The notes under the pieces are model-generated. The model searched no databases and was not told the DNA's origin. It worked only from the letters and a program-made list of their open reading frames with translations. A stretch of 32,581 nucleotides of DNA from Clostridia bacterium. GTDB lineage: Bacteria; Bacillota; Clostridia; Oscillospirales; CAG-272. Below are positions 6,856 through 32,328 of the stretch, in pieces. Within the stretch, counting starts at the first letter, position 1. Each line of letters starts with the position of its first letter. Position numbers and translations under genes: made by a program. The stretch lies in the NCBI GenBank assembly GCA_017451915.1, contig JAFTNJ010000041.1, positions 1-32,581 on the forward strand, read 5' to 3'.

Positions 6856-9800
6856 TCAGGAATCGTAGATCACGAAATAGTAGGGAATCTCCATGACCTT
6901 GGTGCCGGTTGCGTCACGAACCGTAATCACCAAGCAATAGCTACCGTTGCGCTGTCCCGCCAAAGGAAGCACCAGGGTTGCTTTGTTAGCCCCCGAGGGG
7001 TCATCGATCCAGTGATCCTCTTTGTTTTTCAGATCATCCACGGATTGACCGGTGTTGGTGTAGTCATTTCCTGTATCGGCTTTTCTCATTACCACAAGGA
7101 AAAGCGCGTAGTCATCCGGCATGTCGTATTCCACGGTCAGCCTCATTGGCTCGCTCTGGCGATAGAGACCGGTGTCTCCGGTGATCCGTAGCGAGGGCTT
7201 GACGGCGGCCGCTCTGTGGAAGGTCACGCTGTTGACGGTTTGCCGTGCCGTACCCAGCATGGGAGCACGGGATGCCCGGGAACGGGAGGCGTAGAGATGA
7301 ATGTCAAATGCATGGGAAAGCACTTGGTCCAACGGGGTCAACTCGGAAACGAGCCGAAGCTCCAAGCTGGTGGCATCTTGAGAAACCGAAATGATAAATT
7401 GGTTCTCGGCATTGAGATAGTAGTTGGTGGTTTGAATCTTGGTACCCAAATTCTCCACGACCTCCAGGTGAAGATCGGGGGGAAGGTTGGCAAAGTCGTC
7501 TTGAGGAACCACTACCAATGCGGCGGAGCGGTGCTTCCATTTGGAGAGCACGCCCGTGGATTGGGCAAAGGAGGTGATGACCTCGGATTTCAAATTCACC
7601 GCCGGGTTTTGTACGTGCAACGCAAAGGTGACGTCCTCCAGAGTGACTTGAATCGGTGCCTCGACCAGCGGGGGAACCTCCGGTTCTTGCGTACTGTTTT
7701 GGGTTGCGGTCAGCCGGATTGCTAACAGATCCGGAGCCATGCCGTTTGCCGTTTGGGAGAAGTCCACAATGACCTGATAGTGAAGGGACACGGAAAGGTT
7801 GGTGTTCGCATTGGGGTCACCCAAAAGCGTAGTTCCACCCAGCGCGATGAAGTTCTTCAGATACAGAACCGACGCAGGGGAATCTACGTGCGTGTACCAA
7901 AAGCTACCGTCGTTCAGATCCTGTAGCAGAAGGGTGGTTCCTTGAGGTAACGAAAGGGCGTTGCCTGTGGAGGGGTCGGTGATCTCCAGCGCCAAATCCG
8001 TATAGGCATAGTAGTTTTCCACCTCAAAGCGCGCGGTAAAGCCGGAATCGCGGCCGATGACGGCGGTGTCGGAATCCACGGGAGTAAAGACGTGATCCTC
8101 GTCCACCGCAGGGGTGATGGAGGAGCTTGTGCGTACACCCGAAACATCCAGATAGATCTGAATGCTGATTTCCGTGGAAGGAATATTGTACATATGGAAC
8201 CAAGAAGAATCCTTTTTATCGATCTTGGGATATGCTTCTTGTACCACGGATCCCGGAGGACGAATGGATTCCACAATGATGCTGGTGTTGCTTCGGTAGT
8301 GGCCTTCCTCGGCGTAAACGTAAATATAAATACCGTCAATACCGTCGCCGTGGTTCATTTTGACGTACAATCCCGGTACACAGCTGGTAAAGATCGCAAC
8401 GTTTCCGCCGTAGTAGTAGGTTTGATCGGCACTCGTTGCTGCCGAGGCCAGGTAGTTCATGGTCTCTCCGTAGCGGATCTGCACGTAGTAGTTGGTGTAC
8501 AGCATATCCAGCGTTAACCGGTCAAGGTCGTCCCAGTCAATATACACCAGATCGTCGCCATTGAAATAATACAGGCGATACTCGTAATACTGATAATCCT
8601 TGGGGTTATCCTCCGTGGAGGGAAAAATGGTGATGATACGGGGGTCCTGACTTTCGTCTACGGTGTAGGTGGGTTTGTTCGGAGCTGCCTGCGCGGCTTT
8701 GAAGATCCGGTAGACCACCGAGGCCGTGGCATCGCCTTCGGTAATGCTGGCGGTATAGGTGCCGGCGTTTACGGGGACGGAATAGCCCAACAGATTGGTT
8801 CCGCTGTAATCAATGGACGGCAGGGTCCAGGGATTTTCGGAAATCGACGGACGGAACTCGTTTACGCTGGTGATCACCACCGCAGAGAGGGTGGCTCCGT
8901 GGGGATTCTCGTCATAGGTGGCGTTTTGCGCCGAGATGGTCACCTTTTGCCAATAGCCTCGGCAAACGCAGGTACGGGTCAGGGTATTGCCGCTGGCCGA
9001 GAAGGTAAAGGTCACCTCGCTTGCCTTATGCTCGCAAGGCTTCCATTGGGCGATCAGCTGAACCACGGCGTCCTTCTCGGTGGTCAGGTTGATAATGTTG
9101 GCCTGATCGGCAAGAAGAGGACTTGTGGTATTTTCCTGCAACCATCCCAAAAAGATGTAGCCCTGATATACAAAGGCGTTGGGGAGGAGCGTGTACTGCT
9201 TGTCGTATTCCAAACCCTCCATGGCGGGCATGGTGCCCGTGACCGTATCCCCGGGAAGGGGATTGGGAACGAATACCACCGAGTAACCCAATACCTCCCA
9301 GCTGGCGTACAGGATCAGGTCTCCGGGATGCAAATAGTCGGTTTTGGATCCGTCAAAGATACATACGTCGTTGACGGGAGTATACTTTTGACCGGTACCG
9401 TTCTGGTTTTCGTACCAACCCGAAATTTCATAGCCGGGGTGGTTGTAAATATTACCCGAAATGGTGTGCTCCTCGCCGTTCTGGATCTGGTACGCGGTGT
9501 ACTGACCCGAGGTCACGCCGTTCACGTCGGTAAAGTTTTCAAAGTAGATCAGCTTGTAGTAGGTGTGGGCTTGAGGACGGAAATCCCGATAGTCGCCCTG
9601 TCCCTCTACCACGTCAACGGTAATGGGGGATTGGAAGTAGGGGTTGACCATTTCGCCCGCCAGGGTGAGATAGCCGTTGGTAATATAGACCGTATTTTCA
9701 ATGTCGATATAGCCCATTCCGGCGTGGTGATTATAATCGTCGGCCGTGTCGCCGGTGCCGCTCGTGAGCTCTGCGGTGGAGATCAAAACACGACCGCCCT

Positions 9801-12800
9801 CCAGCTTCAGGAAGACGCCGCGCTGCTCACCGCCCTCGGCAACCTGGTTTTGGGTTTCGATCAGGCAGTAGATGTAAAGATTGGTATAGTCGTTGTTACC
9901 AAAGATGTAGATTGCGCCGGCCATGTCGGGAGCTACATTGCCCTCAATCACGGGACAGTTGTTGATCTCCTCCTCGCCTTCCCCGGTATGGTCGCAGGAG
10001 ACGTTGGAGCCGTTGATGGTGTGGTATTTGTTTACACCAATGGTAACCTTGATGGGCAGGATGGCGTATTTGTCACCGGTTACCGAGAAGGCGCCGCCGT
10101 GGGTTCCCACGGTGTTGTAGCTGATCGAGCCGCTGCAAATTTCTACGGTGGCGGCCGATCCACTGGCGGTGACGTAGATACCGCCGCCCGAGCCAGCGGT
10201 TGCCGTATTGCGGTCCACGTGGCCGCCAATCATTTTGTAGTCTCCGTTGGCTACGTAAATACCGCCGCCGTCATTGGTGGCCGTGTTGTAGGAAATGCTA
10301 CCGTCGATTACGTCTACGTTACCGCCGCTCACGTAAGCACCGCCACCGTTGGTTGCGGTGTTATGCTGAATGACAGATTCGTCATCGTTTATGGTCAGGT
10401 CTCCGCCTTTTATGTATAGGTTGCCGCCGCTGACGTAGGCACCGCCGCCGTTGTTGGTTGCGGCGTTATGCTGAATGGCAGCTTGGTCGTTCATGGTCAG
10501 GTCACCGCCGCTGACGTAGGCACCGCCACCGCTTTTTTTGGCTTCGTTGTGACCAATGGTTGACTGGCCGTTCATGGTCAGGGTACCGCCGCTGACGTAA
10601 GCACCGCCACCGTTGGATAAGGCAGTGTTGTTTTGGATGGATGACGTGTCATTCATCGTCAGGGTACCGCCGTTAACAAAGGCACCGCCGCCGCTGGCGA
10701 AGGCGGTGTTGTTTTGAATCAACGCTGTGCTACTGATATTCAACGCACCGCCACCCAGATAGGCACCGCCGCCGTTGTGGCTGGCCTGGTTGTTTTGAAT
10801 GGCACCGCCGCTCATGGTGAGGGTACCGCCGCCCAGGTAGGCACCACCACCGTTACTTTCGGCATCGTTGTTTTTTACAGTACCTGCGGTCATGTTGATT
10901 TTTCCGCTGGCAAGATATAATCCACCGCCGTTGTTTGCGCTATTATTTTGGATGGATCCGCCGTTGATGTTGAGGACTGCGTCACCCGTACCGCCCAGGT
11001 AGGCCGCGCCGCCGTTGGCGTTGGCGGTACAGTTGTTGATCGTACCCGTACCCGAAAGGGTAAAGGTACCGCCGCTCATGTAGACGGCACCGCCGTTTTC
11101 ACCGTTGCAGTTTTGGATGGTACCGCCGCTGATGTTGACCACGCCATTGGGATCGTCCATGTAGATGGCGCCGCCATTTTCTTGCAGAAAAATATATTGG
11201 CTTGCGTCTCGGCTACCGTTGTCGATGATGCCGTCGGTCATGGTCAGGGTACAGGGTTTGGAGCCTCCCGCCGCCATAATGAACTGGCCGGAGGTCGTGC
11301 CGCCGCTGATGGTGACCTCTGCATAACCAATGGTTCCGGTGGGATTGGTGGTAGCACCGCCGCCAATGGAGCCGGCGCGAATGGTGCCGCCCGAGATCTT
11401 CAGGGTGGCAACACCGCCGTTGCCGTTGATACCGCCCTTTCCTCCGCCAATGGCAACCGAGGCAGGGACTTTGATGGTGGTTCCGTCACTATAGGTTCCG
11501 TAATTGCTATCTGCAGTACTGCGCGCAATCACGGTACCGCCGGAAATAGTGATTTCGGCGCTTCCCGCACTGGTATTCACGCTGTTTCCGCCGCCGATGG
11601 CGCAACCGCCAAGGCTTTCGGCATACACGTAGCCGCCGCTGATGCTGACCTTTGCTGCGGTTTTGTTACCCGACTCCAAGATTGAGGAGCCGCCGCCGAT
11701 GGCCGTGCCGGGAATATGGGCTGCGGCTTTTTTAAATTCCTCGGATGCTCCGCTTCCGTAGGTTTTGATGATCTGATAGGCCGGTTGACCAAAGTTGTAG
11801 GCATAAACGGTACCGCCGCTAATCCGAACGTCGCTGGTTCCACCGTAACTGGTATGGGCAATGCCGCCGCCAATGGCGGTGCCGGTGGTGTGAGCCACGG
11901 CGGTGACCGTGCCGCCCGAGATAAAGACCTGTCCTATGCCGTTACCGCCGCCGCCAATGGCGGTGCAGTTATCAATGGGGGTAGCACCGGCATAGATCGT
12001 TCCGCCGGCAAATTTTAATCCGCGAACAGCATCATAAGAGTCGCTTCCGCCAATGACAGACATCCAGTGATTGGCGGCTACCTGTACGCTGTAGTTTCCG
12101 TTTCCGTGAAGATCGTCTTGAACACCGATGACCGTCAGGGAGCCGGTGTGCTTTTTATCTCCGTCGGCACTGGTAAAGGTGAGCGAGCTGGTTGTGGTGC
12201 CGCCGGTATAATAATAAATTTTGCTCATGCGGTTTTCGCCCTTGAGGCGTACCGTAACGTGCGTGTTTGCCGTGGAGGCATTTGTGACCATGATGCCACC
12301 ACCGTAGCCACCGGTGGAGGCGTGTGCCATGGTCCAAAGGCTATCAATGGTAATGTCCACCGTGGTGCCCCCGGCAGAGATGGTGATGTTATTACTATAG
12401 ATCTTGGTTCGCTCTTCGGCGGCAAGCGCATCCCACTTGGCGATGATCCCGGTGATATCGGTATTATTGGTGATATAGCTTCTCCAGGATTGGCCATCCA
12501 CCGTTAGGGAGGTATATTCCGGCAGGATCATCACGCCGTCCACTAAGCCGGTGGTGGATTTGTTTTTGGCGCTGGATTGATAGATGTAGTAGCGATTTTC
12601 GGGCTTGTGCTCACCGGTAACCGTTTTTTTGGTGGTGGTGCCGTTGACCGTTTCAAAGATGGCACCGCTGTAGGTGGTGGAGGTAATTTGGATGTAATCT
12701 GCGTAGAGATCCAAATAAATGTACTCCACGTCCTCGGCGGCGGTGGGAATCGCCTCAAAAGGAAGGAGGCAGACCGTCATGACTACTGCGCAGAGTACCG

Positions 12801-12846
12801 TTAGAAAACGCGCCAGGCGTTTTTTTACGCTCAAATGAGTTGTCAT
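6856..12846 (-). CDS. Giant secreted beta-helix repeat protein (putative adhesin or fibre-associated surface protein)
   Basis: This 1996-residue protein begins with a signal peptide (basic KKRLAR, hydrophobic FLTVLCAVVMTVCLLPF, likely cut after IPTAA). Residues of about 200-560 hold GGG/ISGGTV turns of a parallel beta-helix. Residues of about 555-900 hold 27-residue repeats (GGAYVSGGTLTMN...IQHN). Two InlB/Listeria-Bacteroides-like repeats (GWYE..., GWLQ...) lie near 1130-1265, then a Cys-containing segment (CEH...CVCRGYW), an MBG/YDG-like module to about 1390, and several beta-sandwich segments. The C-terminus (YYFVIYDS) has no LPXTG, membrane anchor or docking domain, so it probably attaches through partners. 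The site AAGGAGGTAGATTCCT precedes the ATG. It is last in an operon with TasA-like subunits and a SipW-like peptidase. Confidence 0.88.
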   Translation of the reverse strand: MTTHLSVKKRLARFLTVLCAVVMTVCLLPFEAIPTAAEDVEYIYLDLYADYIQITSTTYSGAIFETVNGTTTKKTVTGEHKPENRYYIYQSSAKNKSTTGLVDGVMILPEYTSLTVDGQSWRSYITNNTDITGIIAKWDALAAEERTKIYSNNITISAGGTTVDITIDSLWTMAHASTGGYGGGIMVTNASTANTHVTVRLKGENRMSKIYYYTGGTTTSSLTFTSADGDKKHTGSLTVIGVQDDLHGNGNYSVQVAANHWMSVIGGSDSYDAVRGLKFAGGTIYAGATPIDNCTAIGGGGNGIGQVFISGGTVTAVAHTTGTAIGGGIAHTSYGGTSDVRISGGTVYAYNFGQPAYQIIKTYGSGASEEFKKAAAHIPGTAIGGGSSILESGNKTAAKVSISGGYVYAESLGGCAIGGGNSVNTSAGSAEITISGGTVIARSTADSNYGTYSDGTTIKVPASVAIGGGKGGINGNGGVATLKISGGTIRAGSIGGGATTNPTGTIGYAEVTISGGTTSGQFIMAAGGSKPCTLTMTDGIIDNGSRDASQYIFLQENGGAIYMDDPNGVVNISGGTIQNCNGENGGAVYMSGGTFTLSGTGTINNCTANANGGAAYLGGTGDAVLNINGGSIQNNSANNGGGLYLASGKINMTAGTVKNNDAESNGGGAYLGGGTLTMSGGAIQNNQASHNGGGAYLGGGALNISSTALIQNNTAFASGGGAFVNGGTLTMNDTSSIQNNTALSNGGGAYVSGGTLTMNGQSTIGHNEAKKSGGGAYVSGGDLTMNDQAAIQHNAATNNGGGAYVSGGNLYIKGGDLTINDDESVIQHNTATNGGGAYVSGGNVDVIDGSISYNTATNDGGGIYVANGDYKMIGGHVDRNTATAGSGGGIYVTASGSAATVEICSGSISYNTVGTHGGAFSVTGDKYAILPIKVTIGVNKYHTINGSNVSCDHTGEGEEEINNCPVIEGNVAPDMAGAIYIFGNNDYTNLYIYCLIETQNQVAEGGEQRGVFLKLEGGRVLISTAELTSGTGDTADDYNHHAGMGYIDIENTVYITNGYLTLAGEMVNPYFQSPITVDVVEGQGDYRDFRPQAHTYYKLIYFENFTDVNGVTSGQYTAYQIQNGEEHTISGNIYNHPGYEISGWYENQNGTGQKYTPVNDVCIFDGSKTDYLHPGDLILYASWEVLGYSVVFVPNPLPGDTVTGTMPAMEGLEYDKQYTLLPNAFVYQGYIFLGWLQENTTSPLLADQANIINLTTEKDAVVQLIAQWKPCEHKASEVTFTFSASGNTLTRTCVCRGYWQKVTISAQNATYDENPHGATLSAVVITSVNEFRPSISENPWTLPSIDYSGTNLLGYSVPVNAGTYTASITEGDATASVVYRIFKAAQAAPNKPTYTVDESQDPRIITIFPSTEDNPKDYQYYEYRLYYFNGDDLVYIDWDDLDRLTLDMLYTNYYVQIRYGETMNYLASAATSADQTYYYGGNVAIFTSCVPGLYVKMNHGDGIDGIYIYVYAEEGHYRSNTSIIVESIRPPGSVVQEAYPKIDKKDSSWFHMYNIPSTEISIQIYLDVSGVRTSSSITPAVDEDHVFTPVDSDTAVIGRDSGFTARFEVENYYAYTDLALEITDPSTGNALSLPQGTTLLLQDLNDGSFWYTHVDSPASVLYLKNFIALGGTTLLGDPNANTNLSVSLHYQVIVDFSQTANGMAPDLLAIRLTATQNSTQEPEVPPLVEAPIQVTLEDVTFALHVQNPAVNLKSEVITSFAQSTGVLSKWKHRSAALVVVPQDDFANLPPDLHLEVVENLGTKIQTTNYYLNAENQFIISVSQDATSLELRLVSELTPLDQVLSHAFDIHLYASRSRASRAPMLGTARQTVNSVTFHRAAAVKPSLRITGDTGLYRQSEPMRLTVEYDMPDDYALFLVVMRKADTGNDYTNTGQSVDDLKNKEDHWIDDPSGANKATLVLPLAGQRNGSYCLVITVRDATGTKVMEIPYYFVIYDS
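10150..11190 (-). repeat. In-frame tandem repeats coding beta-helix turns
   Basis: About twelve units of roughly 78-84 bp encode GGA-Y/F-x-x-GG-x-L-x-M/I...IQ-N/H-N-x-A. Several neighbouring units (around 10320-10700) are nearly identical in DNA, including repeated GCCGCTGACGTA and GGCACCGCC strings on the plus strand. They are candidates for copy-number change by recombination. Confidence 0.8.
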
Positions 12847-12872
12847 AGGAATCTACCTCCTTTCTGTAAGGA

Positions 12873-13676
12873 TTATTCGGGGATTTTTTCGGTGGCCACG
12901 GTGCCTGCGCAGGTGGCGGTAAAGGGGTCTACGCCCGTGTAGGCATCGGTTTTGATGAAGCGATAGACGCGGGAGGAATAGGCCTCAAAGACGTGAGTGA
13001 ATTCTCCGTCGGCAGTCAGAATATCCTCCATATCGGGCCAGGTGTTGTCGGGGATCAGCCCGGCGGGGAAGGTCACGGTAACGTTTCCTTCCAGATTTTC
13101 GGTCCAGACGGTGAACAGGATGTAGGCGTCGTTGCTGTCGGCGTCGGTATGCTGATAGAGCTTTGCCTCCTTGGCAAGCACCACAAAGGTAGCTTTTAGG
13201 GTTTTGACAAAGCCGGCATCGCCGTTGGCGGTGACCGTGTAGGTGTGTCCGCTTTGCAGTCCCGCAAGGGTCACGCTGATATCACTTTGAACGCCTCCTG
13301 TCAGGGTTCCGGAGGTGGTGGATAACGTGGCGGGGCTTGTGGGATTGGTGGAGGAGGTCACGCTGACGGTGTATTGAATGGTATCGTCGGATTGCCGCAG
13401 CTCGTCGGCAAAATTTTGCAGAGTAAAGGAAAGGGATGTAACGTTGGGATTGAGATAATAAACCTTTCCGTTCGGGGTCAGGGTGTCGCTTTCAAAATAG
13501 AAATTGGGAGCCGAGACCACGGCACTTTGTTGCCGCCCGTACACGTAGCGGGCGTAGAGGGCGGTGCCCGTGATCAGGGAGAGGGAGAGAAGGGCAATGA
13601 CGAGAAAGCGGTAGCGTCCCTGCTTGGTGCCAAGAAAGGCGAGAAGCTTGGGCAATGCCCGGGAAGGCTTGGTCAA
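12873..13676 (-). CDS. TasA-like secreted subunit with SipW-type signal
   Basis: This 267-residue protein starts at a TTG (13676), chosen because an AAAGGACGG site lies upstream and longer starts would overlap the preceding gene. After a basic N-terminus comes a hydrophobic segment (FLVIALLSLSLITGTALYA), then RYVYGRQQS and SAPNFYFESDTL, which resembles the post-signal region of SipW-dependent proteins. The remainder is beta-rich with an Ig-like stretch (YTVSVTSSTNPTSPATLS, then TVTANGDAGFVKTL). There is no second membrane span. It lies between a smaller TasA-like gene and the giant beta-helix gene in one operon, so a minor fibre or adaptor subunit is likely. Confidence 0.65.
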   Translation of the reverse strand: MTKPSRALPKLLAFLGTKQGRYRFLVIALLSLSLITGTALYARYVYGRQQSAVVSAPNFYFESDTLTPNGKVYYLNPNVTSLSFTLQNFADELRQSDDTIQYTVSVTSSTNPTSPATLSTTSGTLTGGVQSDISVTLAGLQSGHTYTVTANGDAGFVKTLKATFVVLAKEAKLYQHTDADSNDAYILFTVWTENLEGNVTVTFPAGLIPDNTWPDMEDILTADGEFTHVFEAYSSRVYRFIKTDAYTGVDPFTATCAGTVATEKIPE

Positions 13677-13696
13677 AAATTCACACCGTCCTTTCT

Positions 13697-14170
13697 TTAG
13701 TCGGTTTGCGCTACAGTCAGATCCAGGCGGATCAAGTCCACCATGCCGGCAAACTCGGGAGAGGTGTTTGCCTCCTCCCATTTTACCGTCAGGGTAATGG
13801 TTTCGGTTTGTCCAATGCCGATCTGCGGCGTTCCATCCTCGGAGGTCACCTCAAAAACGAGGGGGAGGTTGGCCGTGATCCGCATGACCGACACCTCGTA
13901 TTCCACCTCCACCTCACTGTGGTTTTCCACGTGGAAGGTGTAGGTGTAGGGCTTGCCGGGGCGCACGGAAACGTTGAGATGCATGGAAAGCCCCGAAAAA
14001 TCCTCACGAATATCAAACTTTGCCACGCGAGCACTGTCCTGCACCGAGTCGCCGGTGCGGAAGCGGGCGTAGAGATTTTTGGTAAGAGAGGAATTTGCCA
14101 GGACCAGACAGATCAAGAGAAATATGGCGATATAAAAGAATACGGGGCTTTTTTTATTGGATTGCTTCAT
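13697..14170 (-). CDS. Small TasA/camelysin-like subunit
   Basis: This 157-residue protein has an N-terminal hydrophobic segment (FFYIAIFLLICLVLA), then LYARFRTGDSVQDSARVAKF. That closely parallels the AKYVTGDSASDTARVAKW of the 310-residue subunit at 16491, so both should be handled by SipW-like peptidases. The mature part is one beta-sandwich domain with NHSEVEVEYEVSV and TETITLTVKW strands. The start follows AAAGGACGG. It directly follows a SipW-like peptidase gene with a 37-nt gap. It is probably a fibre or cell-surface subunit. Confidence 0.72.
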   Translation of the reverse strand: MKQSNKKSPVFFYIAIFLLICLVLANSSLTKNLYARFRTGDSVQDSARVAKFDIREDFSGLSMHLNVSVRPGKPYTYTFHVENHSEVEVEYEVSVMRITANLPLVFEVTSEDGTPQIGIGQTETITLTVKWEEANTSPEFAGMVDLIRLDLTVAQTD

Positions 14171-14207
14171 GGAAAAAGCACCGTCCTTTCATGGAATTTC
14201 AAAGGGG

Positions 14208-14804
14208 TCAGGAGGGCGTAGAGTCGTCCGAGCCCGAGGAATTGCCCTTGATACGCTCAATTTCTTTTTTCAGCTCCTCCACCTCGTCCCGCTTTTGACG
14301 CTCCTCGCGGTTTTCCACCGAGTAGGATTTGATCAGCAGGATGCCGGCCAGCAACAGGATGGCACCGGTGCCCAGGGGCGATTGCATCCAGGAGATCACG
14401 CCGCCAAGACCGTCGATGTGGAACCATACTGTTCCCTTGATGTCGGTAATGCTGATGGGATCGTCGGCCACCGTGTTGGCCGTGCCTTGGGTGGTGACCG
14501 TGTTGCCCTCAATGGCAATGATCTTATGCACCACCAGAGAGGCTTTGTGCTGAAAGACCACCACGTCGCCTACGTCGTAGGAGGAGGCGCGCTTGACCAC
14601 GATCACGTCGTCGATGGAGAGCTCGGGCTCCATACTGCCCGATACGATCACTCCAACGCCAACGCCAAAGGGCATGGGCATGGGATTTCCCGCCAGGGCG
14701 GTTGCGTTCCAGGTGTAAAGGCCAAAGCCAAAGGCAAGACAGACCACCGCGCTGAGCAGGATGCGCAGGATCTTACGTGTTGTTTGTTTTCGTTTCATGT
14801 TCAT
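14208..14804 (-). CDS. SipW-like (ER-type) signal peptidase I, copy 1
   Basis: This 198-residue membrane protease has an N-terminal span (about residues 13-30), the catalytic serine in VSGSMEPEL (Ser57) and a histidine in VVHKI (His93). Histidine replaces the lysine of ordinary bacterial enzymes, which marks the SipW/archaeal/ER type. A later GTVWFHIDGLG box, a C-terminal span (about 145-160) and a charged coiled-coil tail follow. It would cut the unusual signals of the neighbouring TasA-like proteins. The gene follows the upstream one by 10 nt. Its ATG has no clear ribosome site (ATTCCTTCC precedes it), so translational coupling is likely. Confidence 0.85.
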   Translation of the reverse strand: MNMKRKQTTRKILRILLSAVVCLAFGFGLYTWNATALAGNPMPMPFGVGVGVIVSGSMEPELSIDDVIVVKRASSYDVGDVVVFQHKASLVVHKIIAIEGNTVTTQGTANTVADDPISITDIKGTVWFHIDGLGGVISWMQSPLGTGAILLLAGILLIKSYSVENREERQKRDEVEELKKEIERIKGNSSGSDDSTPS

Positions 14805-14814
14805 GGAAGGAATG

Positions 14815-15681
14815 TTACCACTTTTTGAGACGCTTGTTCATGAGCCAAGCCACGTAAAAGATGAGGACGCCGGTGTTGATAAAGAGCATGGTGAGCCACA
14901 GCCAGCGAATGGTGCCGCCGTACTCCTGGGTGCCCTCCACGGCCATACGGATACCGCCCTGCGCCTCGGGCTCCACGTGCTCCTCGGCGTAGGTGTTAAT
15001 GCCAAGGGTCAGGGTTACGCCCTTTTCGGCGGCCAGATCCCCGTAAAGGGTGTCCAGCTCGTCGTTTCCGCCTTCAAACTGCCAAAGCAGCTCCAGAGTA
15101 AAGGTCTCGTAGGAGTTGGCGCCAAGAAGGCTGACGTGGCGGGAGAGGATGGCGTCGGCTACGTTGACCCATTCGTCCTCGCCGCCAATGAGGTAGTCGC
15201 CGCTTTCGTTGGTGAGGCGAACCTGAAGGGGGAATTCGTAGTCCTTTTGCTTTTCGTTGCCGATCTTGAGGGTAAAATCCAGATCGGTTTCGTAGAGGAC
15301 GGCCATGTTACCGCTGTTGCACATGGTAAACTGATAGGTGGCAAGGGTTCCGGGGGCAATGACCTTGGTGCCGTCCTGGGAGACCACCGTGGGGGTGCCT
15401 TCCCCGTTTTGATAGGAGGCCTGGAAGATGTTGACCTGCTGGCCGGTTTGCCAGGAGGGGATTTCCGCGTCGCCCACGTCCACGTTGGGATTTTTGCCAA
15501 CGATAAAGAGGATGTCGGTGTTTTCGGGGAGGTAGTTGCCAACGCGCAGGGCAATAATGCCAAGGGTCATAAGGAGCAGAACAAAAACGATGTTTACCAT
15601 CAGCATAATATACATCCATTGCTTCCGCGGGCCGGGCTTGGGGGCTTCGGGAAGGGAATGCTCGGGATGCTCGGTTGTCAT
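14815..15681 (-). CDS. TasA-like domain protein with N- and C-terminal membrane spans
   Basis: This 288-residue protein has a Pro-rich cytoplasmic start (HPEHSLPEAPKPGPRKQW), a span (MYIMLMVNIVFVLLLMTLGIIAL), an extracellular domain of about residues 50-255, and a C-terminal span (WLWLTMLFINTGVLIFYVAWLM) ending in KRLKKW. The extracellular part carries VIAPGTLATYQFTMCNSG, matching the IVAPGTMNTIGFQVK region of the 310-residue subunit. The start at 15681 follows AAGGAGGTGGCCCC; an upstream in-frame ATG would sit in repeat DNA. As first gene of the operon and membrane-tethered at both ends, it could be the fibre anchor, a role like that of TapA. This is inference. Confidence 0.68.
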   Translation of the reverse strand: MTTEHPEHSLPEAPKPGPRKQWMYIMLMVNIVFVLLLMTLGIIALRVGNYLPENTDILFIVGKNPNVDVGDAEIPSWQTGQQVNIFQASYQNGEGTPTVVSQDGTKVIAPGTLATYQFTMCNSGNMAVLYETDLDFTLKIGNEKQKDYEFPLQVRLTNESGDYLIGGEDEWVNVADAILSRHVSLLGANSYETFTLELLWQFEGGNDELDTLYGDLAAEKGVTLTLGINTYAEEHVEPEAQGGIRMAVEGTQEYGGTIRWLWLTMLFINTGVLIFYVAWLMNKRLKKW

Positions 15682-15747
15682 GGGGCCACCTCCTTTTTTG
15701 GAATTTTTTATGTTGTGTATTGATTCAGCGAAATATTTGGTTAATAC

Positions 15748-16129
15748 CGTAGGGGCGTTCTTTGAACGCCCGCGGGCGACCACAGGTCGCCCCTACGGGG
15801 GAATGCAAAACGTTCGCTTAACGTGTCATCTCAGAGCAGGCTCGCAAGCTCGCCCGAACCCGACCCAAGGGAGGGCGGCATGCGTAGCATGACGGGATCT
15901 TGTAACAAATCCTGCAATCCTTCATGTGCCAACAAAAGTGACACACTCGTAGGGGCGTTCTTTGAACGCCCGCGGGCGACCACAGGTCGCCCCTACGGGG
16001 GAATGCAAAACGTTCGCTTAACGTGTCATCTTAGAGCAGGCTCGCAAACTCACCCGAACCCGACCCAAGGGAGGGCGGCACGCGTAGCATGATGGGATTT
16101 TGTAACAAATCCTGCAATCCTTCATGTGC
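15748..16129. repeat. Tandem duplication of a 182-bp cruciform-forming repeat (period 200 bp)
   Basis: Copies at 15748-15929 and 15948-16129 are nearly identical, with a handful of substitutions, and are spaced exactly 200 bp. Each begins with CGTAGGGGCG and, 50 nt on, closes with CGCCCCTACG. Inside are two smaller inverted repeats (GGGCGTTC/GAACGCCC and GGGCGAC/GTCGCCC), so the strand can fold as a three-way junction. No transposase or reading frame with a ribosome site is present. Confidence 0.85.
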
Positions 16130-16417
16130 TATGAAGATTACTTTTCCTACAAAAAGCCGGCAGAACTCTTTCGTGGATCCCTTCGTCGCTATCGCTCCTC
16201 GGTTTGCTCCGCTCAACATTGCGTTGCAACTGTTTCGCCTGCGCAAACTTCGACTCCGCTTCGCTCCGCTCAGGATGACACTGTCATCCCCGTGTTTTGC
16301 GATGAATCCCTTACAGGGGAATGTTTGCATTTATCAATCATGTCGCAAAATAGCATAGATTTTTGAAAAGGAACCGCGGCGGAGCCGGGGCAAAATCCAT
16401 CCGATCATGGGACATGG
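16130..16417. other. Non-coding stretch with degenerate repeat
   Basis: No gene was found. A segment near 16249-16278 (GACTCCGCTTCGCTCCGCTC then AGGATGACA) is a palindrome-rich sequence of a kind dispersed in many bacterial genomes. The open frames crossing it lack start sites. Confidence 0.4.
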
Positions 16418-16463
16418 AAAAAAAGAAGATCGGTTCCCGCCCTGCCACGTAGGGCGGGAACCG
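16418..16463 (-). terminator. Terminator of the upstream TasA/SipW operon
   Basis: A perfect 13-bp GC-rich stem (16431-16443 with 16451-16463), 7-nt loop, then TCTTCTTTTTTTCC on the minus strand. It begins 28 nt after the stop of the TasA-like gene. Confidence 0.88.
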
Positions 16464-16490
16464 CGTGTTCATTTCGATTCGGTTAGGAGA

Positions 16491-17423
16491 TTAGTCGACC
16501 TGAACTACATTGACGGAAATATCGAATTTAACATCAATGTTGTAATTGGTTTGATCAACAACCTTGGTGTAGTTTGCACCAGAATCAGTAGTTACAACAA
16601 CAACCTGACCGGCCTCAGCAGCGATGATGTTACCAAGAATGGTGTCCTTTTTATTGGTGGTATCATCTACTTCAAATTCCCACTTCCAAGTAAGGGTGTA
16701 GGTTTCGTTAATCGAATTTTCAGCATTTCCATCTCTTGCATCCTCGTTGAAATAACCGACCATGGTGCTTACAACGGTATTCAGATTGGTGGAGTATGCA
16801 ACGGTACTTCCTTTAACAGAAACACCCCATTGAATGGGATAATAACGATCTTCCGTAACCTCAACAGCATCTACCAAACGGTAGTAGTGCTCGTTTTCGG
16901 AAAGTGCTACATACGCATCCAATTTTTCGAAAGCTCCAGTTGTTTCATTGCCTTTATAAATCTTCTCGGCTGCAAATTTTGTTGCAACATTGATAGCTGT
17001 ATCATCGGGTACACGAACCATTACGGCATAACTTCCTTTTGCAAGCCAAATATCCTCGATGGAGGATTCGGTTTTAGCGGATACATCATATGCTACTTCG
17101 GGTTGGCCGGTAATTTTGACTTGGAAGCCGATAGTATTCATGGTGCCGGGAGCAACAATGTTTGCACCGTCCAGTGCGGAAACGCTCACAGATGTAGCGG
17201 CTACAATTCTGTCTGCGGTGTCAGCGGTGCTATGCTTTTCATAATCAGAACCGAACAATGTACCACTCGTAGATACATCGATTCCCCACTTTGCTACGCG
17301 AGCGGTGTCGGATGCGCTGTCACCGGTTACGTACTTTGCAAAGGTGGTGCCAATGGCACAGGTGCTTGCAAGACAAAGAACAAGCAAACCGGAAGCAAGT
17401 TTTAAGAAAAGATTCTTTTTCAT
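16491..17423 (-). CDS. TasA-like major fibre subunit candidate
   Basis: This 310-residue secreted protein starts at 17423 after AAGGAG. Its signal region is a KKNLFLKL start, a hydrophobic ASGLLVLCLASTCAIGTTFA, then KYVTGDSASDTARVAKWGID, the hallmark region of SipW-dependent TasA-family proteins. The mature domain has TasA-like strands including IVAPGTMNTIGFQVKITG and TYTLTWKWEFEVDD, and ends in beta structure (NIDVKFDISVNVVQ) without an anchor. Codons are more AT-rich than in the neighbours. A SipW-like peptidase lies upstream with a 186-nt gap and a terminator follows. It is probably the abundant fibre subunit; the abundance claim is inference. Confidence 0.78.
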   Translation of the reverse strand: MKKNLFLKLASGLLVLCLASTCAIGTTFAKYVTGDSASDTARVAKWGIDVSTSGTLFGSDYEKHSTADTADRIVAATSVSVSALDGANIVAPGTMNTIGFQVKITGQPEVAYDVSAKTESSIEDIWLAKGSYAVMVRVPDDTAINVATKFAAEKIYKGNETTGAFEKLDAYVALSENEHYYRLVDAVEVTEDRYYPIQWGVSVKGSTVAYSTNLNTVVSTMVGYFNEDARDGNAENSINETYTLTWKWEFEVDDTTNKKDTILGNIIAAEAGQVVVVTTDSGANYTKVVDQTNYNIDVKFDISVNVVQVD

Positions 17424-17522
17424 TTTTTTCTTTATCTCCTTATAAAGATTTTCCTTTGGAATAGGATAAAGATTTATTCTTCCCGTGTTGGGGGAGAAAA
17501 ATTGTCGGGTCAATGCCCAGAG

Positions 17523-17542
17523 TTGTCGCATTGCCGCGACAA
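17523..17542. other. Perfect 7-bp hairpin between peptidase and subunit genes
   Basis: TTGTCGC at 17523-17529 pairs with GCGACAA at 17536-17542 around a 6-nt loop, in the 186-nt gap. It has no T-run. It may protect the 5' end of the subunit mRNA after processing, or bind a regulator. I found no confident promoter in this gap. Confidence 0.35.
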
Positions 17543-17609
17543 TTTATGTATATTCATCACCCCGAGATACGTGGCTTCCGAGGGAAGAATACTACAATGG
17601 GAGAGGGGC

Positions 17610-18350
17610 TCACTCCTCGGTGGGAGGATCCTGGGGGGCGGGCTCCTCGGCAGGAGCCTCGGGGGCAGGTGCTTCGGAGGGAGCCTCAGCTTCGGACGCG
17701 TTGCCCTGCTGTGCGGCCTTGAGAGCCTCCAGCTCGGCGCGCAGGGTGTCAATGTCACTCTGCTTGGCGTTGTCCTGCTTTTTGCGGCGGATCACCTCGT
17801 AGATCACAATGGCCGCTACGGGGAGCAGTACGCAGATCACCAATCCAAGGGTGGATTGCATAAACATGATCACGCTGCCCAGGTGGCCAATGCGGGTGCC
17901 TTCCCAAATTCCCACCAGATTGGAGGCGGGAACCGCCAGGCGATCCTCCAGGTTGTTGTTATCACCCTTGGTGCGGAAGAGGCGCTCCCCCGTGGAGGGA
18001 TCGGTCTCGATCTGCAGCACGCGGTGGGTTACCACGCTGGTGCCGTTGCCCTCGGGATCAAAATAGGAAATTACGTCGCCCACCTTTACCTCGGAGGCAT
18101 CAATGACCTTACAAACGATCATATCTCCCGAGCGGATCTCGGGATCCATGGATTCGGTAAGAACGATCAGCGGGATGTTTCCGCCAATGCTGGGGACTTG
18201 ATCCTCGTGGATCGCGCTTTGAATTAAGAGAACACAGTTGACGATCAGGATAGGAACCAGAAGGATGCAAAGAACTATACCAATGATGTTAAGTACGTTC
18301 CCGCCGTTGTTCTTTTCGCCCGGAGGTCCTGCTTTCTGTTTTTTCAGCAT
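17610..18350 (-). CDS. SipW-like (ER-type) signal peptidase I, copy 2
   Basis: This 246-residue membrane protease has an N-terminal span (about residues 19-44), catalytic LTESMDPEI (Ser67) and VTHRV (His109), and the TKGDNN box (127-132) typical of signal peptidase I. A C-terminal span (about 157-183) and a cytoplasmic tail follow. The tail ends in an Ala/Pro/Glu-rich stretch (APSEAPAPEAPAEEPAPQ). His in place of Lys gives the SipW type. It shares only core motifs with copy 1 at 14208, so the two are old paralogues rather than a recent duplication. The start follows GAAAGGTAG. It is the second gene of the operon and probably cuts the 310-residue TasA-like protein. Confidence 0.88.
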   Translation of the reverse strand: MLKKQKAGPPGEKNNGGNVLNIIGIVLCILLVPILIVNCVLLIQSAIHEDQVPSIGGNIPLIVLTESMDPEIRSGDMIVCKVIDASEVKVGDVISYFDPEGNGTSVVTHRVLQIETDPSTGERLFRTKGDNNNLEDRLAVPASNLVGIWEGTRIGHLGSVIMFMQSTLGLVICVLLPVAAIVIYEVIRRKKQDNAKQSDIDTLRAELEALKAAQQGNASEAEAPSEAPAPEAPAEEPAPQDPPTEE

Positions 18351-18396
18351 ATCAAATCTACCTTTCTATTGTGGTAAGGGGGGGATGGGCGTGGAA

Positions 18397-19173
18397 TCAA
18401 GCTTCTTCCTCGGCGGCCTTGCGCTTTTCCTTGCGCTTTTCCTTGGCAAGCTCCTTTTTGTAGGCTTTGTCCTCGGCGATCTGGGTGCAAACCAGATCAA
18501 TGCCGTCCTTGGCGGCGCCCACGCCTGCGGGCTCGGTCACCTTCATAGAGGAGGCCGACTGCTTCATTTTTACGTTGCTGGCATTGGCGTAGTCCAAAAT
18601 ATCGCGGTCGATAAAGTTGAACTCACAAACGATCTCTCCGCGCTTGATCATCATGCGGATCACGCGATAGGAGCCGATCTTGTAGTCGTGGGAGTTGTTG
18701 TGCTTGGCTTCCTTCACACCTTCCTTGGAGAGGGCGTGGCGAACGATGTCATCAAAGTAGCGCTTGTACTCGGTGGAGAGGGCGGCGTACTTTTCCTCCA
18801 TGGTCAGGGTGTGGGTAGAGAAGGTAACGGCACCGTCATCGACCTCGGCGGGAGCAGGCTCCTCGGCCACGGGCTCTACGGGGGCGGGTTCCTCTACCAC
18901 GGGTGCGGGTGCGGGCTCGGGTTCAGGCTCCGGCTCGGGTTCCGGCGCGGGTGCGGGGGTTGCCACCACGGGAATGGCCTCGGGCTCAACCTTTGCCGCT
19001 TGGGCGGCTAACTCCTGAGCGCGGTAGAATTCTCTCTCCTCCCGTTCTCTTGCCATACGTGCCTTGCTGTTCTCGTGAATGATGTCGCGCACGATCACGA
19101 TCACGGCAAAGAGGCAGAGGGAGCAAAGGAAGAGCATGAAAACGACTACAACAGCTTGCAACATGGTTTCCAT
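18397..19173 (-). CDS. Bitopic membrane protein with Pro-Glu linker and a conserved-looking cytoplasmic domain
   Basis: This 258-residue protein has one N-terminal span (about residues 5-28, AVVVVFMLFLCSLCLFAVIVIV), a charged helix (ENSKARMAREREEREFYRAQ), a Pro/Glu/Ala repeat linker (about 60-115, with EPEPEPEPEP) and a globular domain from about 120. The domain contains EYKRYFDDIVRHALS and HDYKIGSYRVIRMMIKRGE. This recalls a clostridial domain of unknown function that has the pattern Y-x-x-L-K...F...GRK...RGK-x-L. The end is Lys/Glu-rich. It is the first gene of the operon after a consensus promoter, and AAAGGAG precedes the ATG. I do not recognise its function; it may organise the secretion site. 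Confidence 0.65.
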   Translation of the reverse strand: METMLQAVVVVFMLFLCSLCLFAVIVIVRDIIHENSKARMAREREEREFYRAQELAAQAAKVEPEAIPVVATPAPAPEPEPEPEPEPAPAPVVEEPAPVEPVAEEPAPAEVDDGAVTFSTHTLTMEEKYAALSTEYKRYFDDIVRHALSKEGVKEAKHNNSHDYKIGSYRVIRMMIKRGEIVCEFNFIDRDILDYANASNVKMKQSASSMKVTEPAGVGAAKDGIDLVCTQIAEDKAYKKELAKEKRKEKRKAAEEEA

Positions 19174-19352: not shown

Positions 19353-19381
19353 ATTATAGCACATTTTGGGCTTTTTGTCAA
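19353..19381 (-). promoter_or_regulatory. Perfect consensus promoter of the upstream TasA/SipW operon
   Basis: Minus-strand TTGACA (19376-19381), a 17-nt spacer and TATAAT (19353-19358) match the sigma-A consensus at all twelve positions, so a high basal rate is expected unless a regulator intervenes. Confidence 0.9.
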
Positions 19382-26977: not shown

Positions 26978-27004
26978 AACGGGAAGGATTTCTTCCTTTC
27001 CCGT
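26978..27004 (-). terminator. Weak hairpin at the end of the ABC ATPase gene
   Basis: AACGGGAAGGA (26978-26988) pairs with TCCTTTCCCGTT (26993-27004) with one bulge, overlapping the stop codon. The minus-strand continuation is TCTCTCC, not a T-run, so it is a partial terminator at best and could lower expression of the acyltransferase. Confidence 0.35.
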
Positions 27005-27735
27005 TACCGTTGTTGCGTTTTCATATAGGCGTCGCAGAGTTCCTCGGTTTCTCCAATGGCAACGACCTTGCCGTGGTCCAGCCAGATCACGCGGTCGCAA
27101 AGACGGCGAACCTGGTCGATGTTGTGTGACACCAGCAGCACCGTGGTGCCGTGGCTCATCAGCTCCATCATGCGGGCGTAGCTCTTTTCCTGGAAGGCGG
27201 CGTCACCCACCGCCAGGATCTCGTCCACGATCAAAATGTCGGGGACCACCTGGGAGGCAATGGAAAAGGCCAGGCGCATGATCATACCCGAGGAATAGTT
27301 TCGCACGGGGATATCAATGAACTCTCCCAGCTCGGAGAACTCCACGATCTCGTCGTATTTTTCCTTCAGGAACTTCTCGGAGTAGCCCAGAATGGCTCCG
27401 TTGAGGAAGATGTTCTCCCGCCCCGAGAGATCAAAGTCAAAGCCGCTTCCCAGCTCCAGCATGGGAACCACATTGCCCTCCAGGGTCACCGATCCCGTGG
27501 TGGGGCGCAGGATCCCGGAGATCACCTTGAGCAGGGTACTCTTTCCGGCGCCGTTGCTTCCAACGATGCCAATGACCTCGCCCTTTTCGATCTCAAAGCT
27601 CACGTCCTGCAGGGCGCGGAACTCGTCGTACTTCAGTTTTCGCTTGAGCAGAGCCACCAAGTATTCCTTGATGCTTTGAATTTTGTCGTTGGCCATACGG
27701 TAGCATACCGTAATGTTTTCTGCTTTAATCATCAT
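27004..27735 (-). CDS. ATP-binding protein of a polysaccharide/teichoic-acid ABC exporter (TagH/Wzt type)
   Basis: This 243-residue ATPase has Walker A GSNGAGKST (about 59-67), signature YSSGM (about 147), Walker B ILIVDE (about 167) and the switch histidine in VLLVSHN (about 201). The N-terminal segment (AENITVCYRMANDK...FRALQDVSFEI) is typical of Wzt/TagH. It lacks the C-terminal carbohydrate-binding domain of long Wzt proteins. Its partner permease is encoded just upstream. AAAGGA lies 18 nt before the double ATG, which is long; an ATT codon 12 nt upstream of the ATG is an alternative start. Confidence 0.92.
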   Translation of the reverse strand: MMIKAENITVCYRMANDKIQSIKEYLVALLKRKLKYDEFRALQDVSFEIEKGEVIGIVGSNGAGKSTLLKVISGILRPTTGSVTLEGNVVPMLELGSGFDFDLSGRENIFLNGAILGYSEKFLKEKYDEIVEFSELGEFIDIPVRNYSSGMIMRLAFSIASQVVPDILIVDEILAVGDAAFQEKSYARMMELMSHGTTVLLVSHNIDQVRRLCDRVIWLDHGKVVAIGETEELCDAYMKTQQR

Positions 27736-27775
27736 AAGAAGAGCAATATGCGTCCTTTCTTTGGTTATGAGAGGA

Positions 27776-29260
27776 TCAGATGTTCAAAACGAACTTGTCC
27801 TCGTTCTTTCGGAAGACCACAAGACCGATCAGGAAGGGGATCAGGCAAAGCACCGCGCAGTACAGGTAGGCTTTGGGCTCCAGGGAAACGCCGTCGATGA
27901 GGATACTGCGCATAAAGCGGATCACGTGATACAGGGGGTTGAGCTTATAGATGCTCATAAAGCGATCGGGAATGATGGTATCGGGGTAGAAGATGGGGGT
28001 CATATACATCAGGAGCATGGAGAAGATGTTCCAGAGGAACTGGGTATCCCGGAAGAAGACCATCATGGTTGCCAGGAGCAGGCCCACGCCGTAGCTGAGG
28101 AAAAAGAGCATCAGAAGGGCGAAGGGAAGGAGCAGAATGGCAGGGGTGATGGGGGTACGGGTGATCAACAGCATGATCAACAGAGGCACCAGGGAGAGGA
28201 GCAGATTGATGCCCGAGGAAATGGTGCGGGAGAAGGGATAGATATACTTGGGAACGTAGACCTTATTGATCAGGGAGGCGTTGCCGATGATGCTGACCAG
28301 ACACATGCTGGTGGCCTCGCTGAAGAAGTTGAAGCAGATGATACCCGTGAGCAGGTAGATGATAAAGTTGGGAATGGTGGACTTGAAGATGGTAGAGAAG
28401 ACCACGTACTGGATGCTCATGGTGAGCAGAGGGTTCAAAAAGCTCCAAAGCATACCCAGCACCGAGCGCTTGTATTTGGATTTGAAGTCTCTGGATACCA
28501 GCTGACGGATCAAAAAGCTGTATTTCTGGATCGAGAGTGCCACGGAAAGGATCAGGGTTTTCTTCCCCTTTTGGAAGCAGAGATACTGGTACGCCAGACC
28601 AAGGAGAAGCAACAGAGCTCCGCCGGCATAAAGGAACCAGTAGTATTTGCCAAACCAGTGATTGTCGGTGCCGTTGAGGGAGAGGCAAAGCTGGCAGATG
28701 TTGCCCTCGGTGTCCTTAAAGGGAACAAACTTGTCCCCCTCGTAAACGCATAGGGCGTCGGCCTCGTCGATCTGGGTATTAAAATCAAAGCGGCCGGTGT
28801 CCACGGAGTTTCCGTAATAGAAGCAGATGGCATTCTTAGGGGCACCGTAGCGGCTGGTCAGCTGCAGTACAAATCGCTGTCCCCGCGCCTCGGTAATGGG
28901 GGTGGGAAAAACCACGGTGTAGGCGGTGTTGTCCTTCAGCTTGGCGGTGGCCATGCGAATGGGCTCAATCACGGCCTGTCCGTTCTCGTCCAAAATCTCC
29001 ACCAGGATCATATCGTTGTTTTCCCGGGCGTTGGTTCCCACCAGCAGAGAGATGGAGGTCAGCTCGTCGAACTCACAAACAAAGCTTTGTCGGATCTTTT
29101 CTCCGGCGGTAAATTCTCCAAGACTGGCTTTGGCGGTCACGGTTTCAATGGAATTGGCCGTTGCGTGCAGGCTGTCGCCGGCGATAAAATAGAAGGCGAC
29201 GCCAAGGATCAGGTAAAGAGCCATGGCAACAAGGCAAATCCGTATGGCTTTGTTTTTCAT
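27776..29260 (-). CDS. ABC-2 polysaccharide export permease fused to an N-terminal extracellular domain
   Basis: This 494-residue protein ends in a normal Wzm/TagG-type permease (about 245-494): RDFKSKYKRSVLGMLWSFLN, then six or so spans, with YMTPIFYPD and LNPLYHVIRFMRSILIDG landmarks. Before it lies an extra module: a span (about 7-27), a beta-rich domain outside the membrane (about 30-200, IRQSFVCEFDELTSISLLVG, later RFVLQLTSRYG) and a second span (about 205-228). Typical permeases are only about 260 residues. The start follows GGAAAGGATTTGTT. The domain may recognise or modify the exported glycan; that is inference. Confidence 0.88.
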   Translation of the reverse strand: MKNKAIRICLVAMALYLILGVAFYFIAGDSLHATANSIETVTAKASLGEFTAGEKIRQSFVCEFDELTSISLLVGTNARENNDMILVEILDENGQAVIEPIRMATAKLKDNTAYTVVFPTPITEARGQRFVLQLTSRYGAPKNAICFYYGNSVDTGRFDFNTQIDEADALCVYEGDKFVPFKDTEGNICQLCLSLNGTDNHWFGKYYWFLYAGGALLLLLGLAYQYLCFQKGKKTLILSVALSIQKYSFLIRQLVSRDFKSKYKRSVLGMLWSFLNPLLTMSIQYVVFSTIFKSTIPNFIIYLLTGIICFNFFSEATSMCLVSIIGNASLINKVYVPKYIYPFSRTISSGINLLLSLVPLLIMLLITRTPITPAILLLPFALLMLFFLSYGVGLLLATMMVFFRDTQFLWNIFSMLLMYMTPIFYPDTIIPDRFMSIYKLNPLYHVIRFMRSILIDGVSLEPKAYLYCAVLCLIPFLIGLVVFRKNEDKFVLNI

Positions 29261-29295
29261 AACAAATCCTTTCCAAAAAAATTAAAACGGTCGGG

Positions 29296-30333: not shown

Positions 30334-30356
30334 CGAATATCCTTTCACAAGCCGAG

Positions 30357-31262: not shown

Positions 31263-31293
31263 AGTATCCTCGTTAGCGTAGAAAGATGGGGGA

Positions 31294-32256: not shown

Positions 32257-32328
32257 TACGCGTTCCTCCTTCCTCATTTTTCGCGGCGAAAGCTCAATCT
32301 ATCCTTATGATTGTAAGCATACAAAGTC

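What the first reader, a model, noticed from the sequence alone, without database searches (positions are those of the whole stretch)
6856..19173. Twin SipW/TasA-type operons building a surface structure around a 1996-residue beta-helix protein
Seen: two adjacent minus-strand operons, each with a Ser/His signal peptidase (Ser57/His93 and Ser67/His109) and secreted proteins sharing a post-signal pattern (A-K/R-Y/F-x-T-G-x-S...D-x-ARVAK), ending in a giant beta-helix protein with no anchor. Known: in Bacillus, SipW matures TasA and TapA into matrix fibres. Inferred: this is an expanded version with a membrane-tethered anchor candidate (14815), two minor subunits, a major subunit (16491) and a very large passenger displayed through the fibre. 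I know of no described system with this gene set.
Basis: partly seen in the sequence, partly recalled or inferred. Interest (0 to 1): 0.78.

Follow-up and report, generated by a model that had tools for sequence, protein, structure and literature searches.

The report
Seven-gene surface-fibre cassette with RNA brackets
A conserved block of seven genes in uncultured gut Clostridia looks like a kit for building an anchored surface fibre that carries a giant, probably sticky protein, and the gene for the fibre's likely main subunit is framed by two RNA hairpins whose loops can pair with each other.

Summary
The order SipA-TasM-Tas322-SipB-Tas157-Tas302-giant recurs: 19 single-contig loci carry the first five genes, and 11 genomes have Tas302 followed by a giant with the same C-terminal region. 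That region was found in 3 of 394 genomes of the order, each time in this cassette. The Tas322 ectodomain is homologous to TasM (hhalign 99.3%); the protein ends in a membrane helix (window), a sortase-type P-x-T-G signal or S-layer domains, so it is probably the anchor. Other cassettes carry an unrelated giant.

I read them as a kissing-loop bracket stabilising the major-subunit message.

Not shown: TasA fold, donor-strand exchange, fibres. Structure prediction was off; no Pfam, NCBIfam or PDB sequence match links TasM to TasA.

The parts
17610..18350 (-). SipA: SipW-type signal peptidase (Ser67, His109), first gene of the conserved cassette
   Evidence: TIGR02228 96.5 bits, cut-off 51.85; catalytic columns 57 of 57
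17552..17595 (-). 5' RNA element: hairpin 15 nt after the SipA stop, loop GCCACG, about 150 nt before the TasM start
   Evidence: word present upstream of TasM in 20 of 20 loci; covariance model R2 finds it and two sites outside its training set
16491..17423 (-). TasM: putative major subunit with SipW-type signal (FAKYVTG..SDTARVAKW) and C-terminal VVQVD
   Evidence: 19-member alignment A2
16430..16464 (-). 3' RNA element: 13-bp hairpin 26 nt after the TasM stop, loop ACGUGGC, T-run a few bases on
   Evidence: covariation score 0.521 vs 0.233 +/- 0.033; only site of the model in this genome at E<=0.1
14815..15681 (-). Tas322: anchor candidate; N-terminal helix without the cleavage pattern, TasM-like ectodomain, C-terminal membrane helix
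   Evidence: hhalign to TasM 99.3%, E 5e-20; hydrophobic stretches; homologues end in P-x-T-G or SLH
14208..14804 (-). SipB: second SipW-type signal peptidase (Ser57, His93)
   Evidence: TIGR02228 65.3 bits
13697..14170 (-). Tas157: minor TasM-like subunit with SipW-type signal
   Evidence: alignment A7 of 16; HMM cross-hit with TasM
12873..13781 (-). Tas302: secreted adaptor candidate paired with the giant; true start uncertain (probably near 13650)
   Evidence: alignment A3; neighbours
6856..12846 (-). Giant passenger, 1996 aa, beta-helix-like Gly-rich repeats (by eye and pattern count), List-Bact repeat
6859..7908 (-). Conserved C-terminal ~350-residue region of the giant, ending in YYFVIYDS
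   Evidence: alignment A4 of 10 giants; in 394 genomes of the order found in 3, all in the cassette
19353..19381 (-). Promoter-like site TTGACA-17-TATAAT upstream of the 258-aa ORF and SipA
   Evidence: 12 of 12 matches; a consensus match only

Best explanation
The block is one operon for a SipW-dependent, cell-anchored surface fibre with an exchangeable giant passenger. SipA and SipB cut the special signal peptides of TasM, Tas157 and Tas302 (inferred). TasM, freed of its signal, polymerises, probably by handing its new N-terminal strand to a neighbour as TasA does (inferred). Tas322 is a TasM-like unit fixed at the cell: in the window by its membrane helices, in other genomes by sortase-type signals or S-layer domains (shown by sequence), so it is the base on which the fibre grows (inferred). 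Tas157 and Tas302 are minor units; Tas302 and the conserved C-terminal region of the giant form the coupling that puts the beta-helix-like protein on the fibre (inferred from their pairing). The TasM message is framed by two hairpins with complementary loops; pairing of the loops closes the TasM segment and, with the strong 3' stem, protects it and damps read-through, so that many TasM are made per anchor and giant (pairing supported by comparison, effect inferred).
For: Gene order conserved at 19 single-contig loci. Tas322-TasM homology. Anchor swaps: P-x-T-G in the second half of Tas322 in 18 of 27 genomes, 16 of them with a sortase; of 9 without it, 6 lack sortase (Fisher p 0.006; p 0.0002 for the narrower P-x-T-G-[D/E], chosen after seeing the data; kinship ignored); SLH E 1e-35 in one; sortase genes next to the cassette in three loci. 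Tas302-giant pairing in 11 genomes and C-terminal region confined to the cassette in the order search. RNA brackets: 26 of 29 TasM loci; 0 of 525 other ORFs in the same loci have the 3' hairpin; stem covariation; loop-loop compensation, permutation p 0.0012. Clostridial precedents: sipW-bsaA with a terminator after bsaA (PMC7395162, sections 5 and 14 read) and 3' stem-loops setting subunit ratios (PMC4423207, abstract and passages).
Against: No sequence link of TasM to TasA, camelysin or any solved structure. No structure prediction was possible. Nothing shows expression, polymer or display. Tas302 shares only its signal region with TasM (hhalign 16.8%), so its place in the fibre is a guess. 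The giant has an ordinary-looking signal peptide (by eye) and could simply be secreted. P-x-T-G and sortase do not match perfectly: G004 and G027 have PLTGG/PITGG without a sortase, and G228, G139 and G248 have a sortase without the motif. One locus (L094) keeps the core without the RNA brackets. The 13 sites found by model R1 were in its training set; the permutation test of loop pairing rests on a few variant loops and ignores kinship.
Confidence: 0.58

Rival explanations
1. A biofilm-matrix system of the Clostridium perfringens sipW-bsaA kind: TasM makes loose extracellular filaments, and Tas322, Tas302 and the giant are accessory matrix proteins not built into the fibre.
For: Same opening order (peptidase, filament protein, terminator-like hairpin) and a sortase gene just upstream of SipA in two relatives, as in C. 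perfringens; BsaA polymers form without BsaB, BsaC or the sortase and are mostly extracellular.
Against: A protein with TasM-like ectodomain and cell anchor is conserved and its anchoring end changes type; BsaA homology to TasM was not testable here as no C. perfringens sequence was fetched.
Confidence: 0.25
2. The giant is a free secreted adhesin or enzyme that merely shares the operon.
For: No membrane stretch besides the signal; ordinary-looking signal peptide; 10 of 19 five-gene loci lack it.
Against: Tas302-giant adjacency in 11 genomes and confinement of its C-terminal region to the cassette in the search of 394 genomes.
Confidence: 0.15
3. The two hairpins are independent protein-binding sites or plain terminators, with complementary loops by descent or as a shared inverted recognition sequence.
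For: Loops are nearly invariant; several 3' hairpins are followed by T-runs.
Against: L092 and L098 have A-U where most have G-C; L100 has UGCCGC/GCGGCA in the two loops; L038, L093 and L039 have G-U. Two fixed protein sites would not be expected to co-vary.
Confidence: 0.3

Closest known systems
Clostridium perfringens sipW-bsaABCRSD operon with srtB upstream (PMC7395162; abstract and sections 5 and 14 read)
   Same: SipW-type peptidase first, filament protein second, predicted terminator after the filament gene with read-through, sortase gene nearby in some relatives of the window's cassette
   Different: One peptidase; no anchor of this kind and no giant named in the sections read; sequence homology of BsaA to TasM not tested here
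Bacillus subtilis tapA-sipW-tasA and B. cereus sipW-calY operons (PMC9674648 and PMC10151520, passages; PMC13082335, abstract)
   Same: Dedicated SipW, major fibre protein plus accessory assembly protein; N-terminal donor strand after signal removal is a plausible common principle
   Different: No family or profile match of TasM to TasA/camelysin; two peptidases; an anchor that is itself TasM-like; a giant passenger
Selective RNA processing and stabilisation by 3' stem-loops, cip-cel operon of Clostridium cellulolyticum (PMC4423207, abstract and passages)
   Same: Strong stem-loop behind the gene of the (here presumed) abundant subunit in an operon for a multi-subunit surface complex
   Different: The main text of that paper holds neither 'kissing' nor 'loop-loop'; here the 3' loop is fixed and matches a second hairpin in front of the gene
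Sortase-built pili of Gram-positive bacteria (recalled)
   Same: Anchored fibre with major, base and tip subunits
   Different: TasM carries no sorting signal; only the anchor does in some genomes, and no sortase was found in the window's genome

Membership tests
TasA/camelysin fibre system | SipW-type Ser/His signal peptidase encoded with its substrates | tested here: met
   TIGR02228 above cut-off for both; Ser and His invariant in 57 of 57; that TasM is the substrate is inferred
TasA/camelysin fibre system | Major subunit recognised by TasA/camelysin sequence models | tested here: not met
   0 of 19 TasM proteins match such a model in Pfam or NCBIfam at E<=0.1; no PDB sequence match of the profile at E<=1
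TasA/camelysin fibre system | Jellyroll/Ig-like subunit with N-terminal donor strand | not testable with these tools
TasA/camelysin fibre system | Forms extracellular fibres | not testable with these tools
   needs microscopy
C. perfringens sipW-bsaA operon type | sipW followed by filament gene and a terminator-like hairpin | tested here: met
   gene order and hairpin; that TasM is a filament protein is inferred
C. perfringens sipW-bsaA operon type | Filament protein homologous to BsaA | not tested
   no BsaA sequence was fetched
Sortase-anchored surface protein (Tas322) | C-terminal P-x-T-G, membrane helix, positive tail, and a sortase in the genome | tested here: not met
   not met in the window (no motif, no PF04203 match); motif and sortase together in 16 of 27 genomes
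Rfam RNA families | Match above a family's gathering score | tested here: not met
   only sub-threshold hits around both hairpins of the window

The most novel reading that the evidence does not exclude
Cassette and RNA form one device: a long-range kissing-loop bracket (5' loop GCCACG, 3' loop CGUGGC, about 1.1 kb apart in the window) turns the major-subunit cistron into a closed, protected mRNA segment and so sets the ratio of fibre subunit to anchor and giant. This would be a new RNA architecture dedicated to one fibre system, in which the fibre's cargo and its mode of attachment to the cell are freely exchanged between lineages.
Probability: 0.45. Interest if true: 0.82.

Novelty: new variant of a known kind. 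Interest (0 to 1): 0.72.

Why it matters
It shows a modular surface-fibre kit in uncultured gut Clostridia, with one core, at least two unrelated giant cargoes and three ways of being anchored. It makes testable how SipW-type fibres are fixed to cells and carry other proteins, which to my knowledge is open outside Bacillus. The paired hairpins offer a clean genetic test (swap one loop, then both) of whether mRNA can be closed on itself to set subunit ratios.

Tried and rejected
PDB sequence searches with the TasM profile and the giant gave nothing. Pfam, NCBIfam and Rfam gave no TasA-like or RNA family. A relation of Tas302 to TasM beyond the signal, or to the giant's C-terminal region, was not found by profile comparison. 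A DNA-recombination reading of the hairpins (sites for exchanging the TasM gene) was considered: TasM with both hairpins lies apart from the Tas322 cluster in G112, G166 and G355, but the two stems are unlike each other and some loop pairs are G-U, so RNA is preferred. The 258-aa ORF was dropped as not conserved. Weak TasM/Tas322-profile hits in G027:C42 and G314:C37 belong to other SipW loci; the pattern scan reported no brackets for them, as they lack the TasM-type signal pattern; they are not in the 29. A control scan with permuted loop letters gave 2 to 15 hairpins against 28 for the real loop in 763 kb, so position counts more than mere presence. My first sortase table, by eye, scored G004 and G027 as lacking the motif (p 0.0002); the strict count replaces it (p 0.006), and I lowered the overall confidence from 0.60 to 0.58 for that.
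Full report
What is there. The window is contig C36 of a 2.2-Mb, 87% complete genome. On the minus strand, reading downstream: 258-aa ORF (18397-19173), SipA (17610-18350), TasM (start probably 17423, end 16491), a gap of about 800 bases, Tas322 (15681-14815), SipB (14804-14208), Tas157 (14170-13697), Tas302 (to 12873), and the giant (12846-6856). From Tas322 on, genes are 10 to 40 bases apart or overlap. The names TasM, Tas322, Tas157 and Tas302 are mine. The peptidases are of the Ser-His type of TIGR02228 and are the only two found in the genome.

Conservation. SipA as query matched 40 of 60 relatives, many of them at other kinds of SipW locus. I fetched 20 stretches, then 18, 7 and 1, and named genes by profiles built from the window. 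A Tas322 alignment matched 22 of 394 genomes of the order and 6 of 35 of the genus, both counts including the window's; some hits are to TasM-like genes. Tas302 matched 4 of 394. A scan of named genomes with Tas302 gave 11 loci, 7 of them titled as goat, sheep or buffalo hindgut MAGs. In all, 19 loci show SipA-TasM-Tas322-SipB-Tas157 on one contig (window, L033, L035, L037, L038, L087-L094, L100, L115, L116, L117, L119, L122). L098 has the first four. L034/L051, L036/L149, L099 and L120 are cut by contig ends. Departures: L102 and L123 lack Tas322; L095-L097 lack TasM at the cluster, TasM lying elsewhere in those genomes; L039 has one SipA with four TasM-like genes; L101 has a lone Tas322; L124 is a partial contig.

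Passengers. Tas302 is directly followed by a giant with the same C-terminal region in 11 genomes (window, G003, G022, G178, G349 and the genomes of L115, L116, L117, L119, L120, L122; L122 was put into the alignment by its end motif, and G022 scored E 5e-25 against it). The giants differ in length (1521-2700 aa) and N-terminus; of ten scanned, nine carry SGG-type repeats and L122 none. The C-terminal region (A4, mean column identity 35%) was found in 3 of 394 genomes of the order, each time in the cassette, and in 2 of 291 of the class: the window and one weak 115-residue hit that I did not follow. Of the 19 five-gene loci, 9 have this giant. Five others (L038, L088, L089, L091, L094) have another large protein; four of these (not L094) are related to each other by BLAST, as is one in L104 outside the core, and none of the six matches the first kind. 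L123 has Tas302 without a giant, and in G060 a weak Tas302 relative stands beside another large protein without the core.

Anchor. Tas322 has an N-terminal helix without the cleavage pattern, an ectodomain homologous to TasM (probability 99.3%, E 5e-20, 186 columns) and a C-terminal helix. Of 27 genomes whose Tas322 was read, 18 have P-x-T-G in its second half; 16 of these have a sortase, G004 and G027 (window's genus, PLTGG and PITGG) have none. Of 9 without the motif, 6 have no sortase and 3 do (G228, G139, G248). Fisher p is 0.006; for P-x-T-G-[D/E], chosen after seeing the data, 15 of 15 have a sortase against 4 of 12 (p 0.0002); kinship is ignored. No sortase was found in the six cassette genomes of the window's genus. 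In G349, also without sortase, the protein has three SLH stretches (E 1e-35); in G003 it has a tail like ribosomal L15 (E 2e-6). Sortase genes lie beside the cassette in G425, G423 and the genome of L119. One protein kept at the cell by changing means is good evidence for an anchor.

RNA brackets. A strong terminator-like hairpin follows TasM. Of 25 TasM loci, 22 have within 120 bases of the stop the loop N[C/U]GUGGC in a hairpin whose stem sequence varies; 20 of these have 8 or more pairs with at most one mismatch, L037 and L119 have more mismatches. L100 and L102 have loop variants and L094 none. The ungapped alignment of 21 (near-duplicate L099 left out) shows changes on both sides in 13 of 13 pairs and covariation 0.521 against 0.233 +/- 0.033 in shuffles; a slide of +1 gives 0.467, so two registers coexist. 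In 24 genomes the model hit at the TasM site in 13 of 17 cassette genomes (all 13 sites are in its training set) and, at E<=0.1, elsewhere only once in those 17 (E 0.076); 2 of 7 other genomes gave weak hits (E 0.013, 0.084). In 325 genomes of the order at E<=1e-3 it hit 9, all at TasM genes, two of them (G112, G166) not known before; known weaker sites such as that of G192 were missed. Both searches scored only part of the candidates in many genomes.

In front of TasM, 20 of 20 loci have GCCAC[G/A] within 260 bases, in a hairpin; in 16 of the 19 with SipA in view it begins within 60 bases of the SipA stop (coordinates). The rule was then met in loci not used to make it: L039, L099 (as L145), G022, G112, G166 and G355, six of six with both halves; L039's 3' side was already in the 3' alignment and L099 is nearly identical to L091. 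The model of the 5' hairpin (R2) found one site below E 0.01 in each of its 20 training sources and, outside, G112 (E 2e-6) and G022 (E 2e-4); it missed the 5' sites of L039, G166 and G355, and found none in L094, L100 and L102. The 3' model missed G022 and found G355 only at E 0.03. In total 26 of 29 loci have both halves. Of the rest, L100 has UGCCGC with GCGGCA, a six-pair match in the two loops, L102 a five-base match, and L094 neither. L092 and L098 pair A-U where most pair G-C; L038, L093 and L039 have G-U. One search scored L100 in another register as 5 of 6; permutation of 26 loop pairs gave p 0.0012. Among 525 other ORFs of the same loci, 26 had the upstream word, 13 the downstream word, 1 both, and 0 the hairpin; of 40 ORFs with the TasM-type signal (Tas157-like ones included), 22 had word and hairpin. 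Rfam has no such family at its thresholds.

How it may work. Shown by sequence: gene set, anchor types, passenger modules, hairpins with complementary loops. Inferred: polymerisation, display of the giant, and the effect of the hairpins. In C. perfringens, secretion of BsaA depends on SipW, BsaA forms filaments, and a predicted terminator follows bsaA with read-through (PMC7395162, sections 5 and 14). TasA polymerises by an N-terminal donor strand, with TapA proposed to supply the first strand (PMC9674648, PMC10151520, passages). In C. cellulolyticum, 3' stem-loops set the ratios of complex subunits (PMC4423207, abstract and passages). TasM behind SipA and before a strong stem-loop fits an abundant fibre subunit.

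Novelty. Searches of the held open-access library (listings of the best hits only) showed no paper on this gene set or on paired hairpins around a tasA-like gene; most subscription papers and preprints are not held. The protein system is a new variant of SipW-dependent fibre systems; membership of the TasA family is not claimed, since the sequence test failed and the fold test could not be run. The RNA bracket is the more novel part.

Noticed in passing
window 15783-16430: The gap between the 3' hairpin and Tas322 is filled by short repeats (by eye, two copies of a roughly 150-base unit and palindromic pieces); the TasM-Tas322 gaps of 20 other loci are only 85-391 bases.
   Followed up: no
L045, L046, L123: Another SipW-linked gene set: SipW-like peptidases, in L045 and L046 with large proteins, and a protein with a similar hydrophobic N-terminus that in L123 reads by eye as an ATPase.
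   Followed up: no
L037:5384-6532: The anchor protein of G003 has a C-terminal tail matching ribosomal L15/L18e (E 2e-6) after its membrane helix.
   Followed up: no
L037:1059-3079: Two genes upstream of SipA in G003 look by eye like a LytTR-type regulator and an AgrC-like kinase; C. perfringens has bsaRS in its operon.
   Followed up: no
L038:8965-14177; L088:3470-9163; L089:4320-9161; L091:10477-15774: A second passenger module: a 1400-1700 aa protein ending near WLNG or WLSG plus a small signal-bearing protein of about 190 aa.
   Followed up: partly
window 27004-32277: Minus-strand cluster of an ABC transporter pair and three glycosyltransferases, likely surface polysaccharide export.
   Followed up: no
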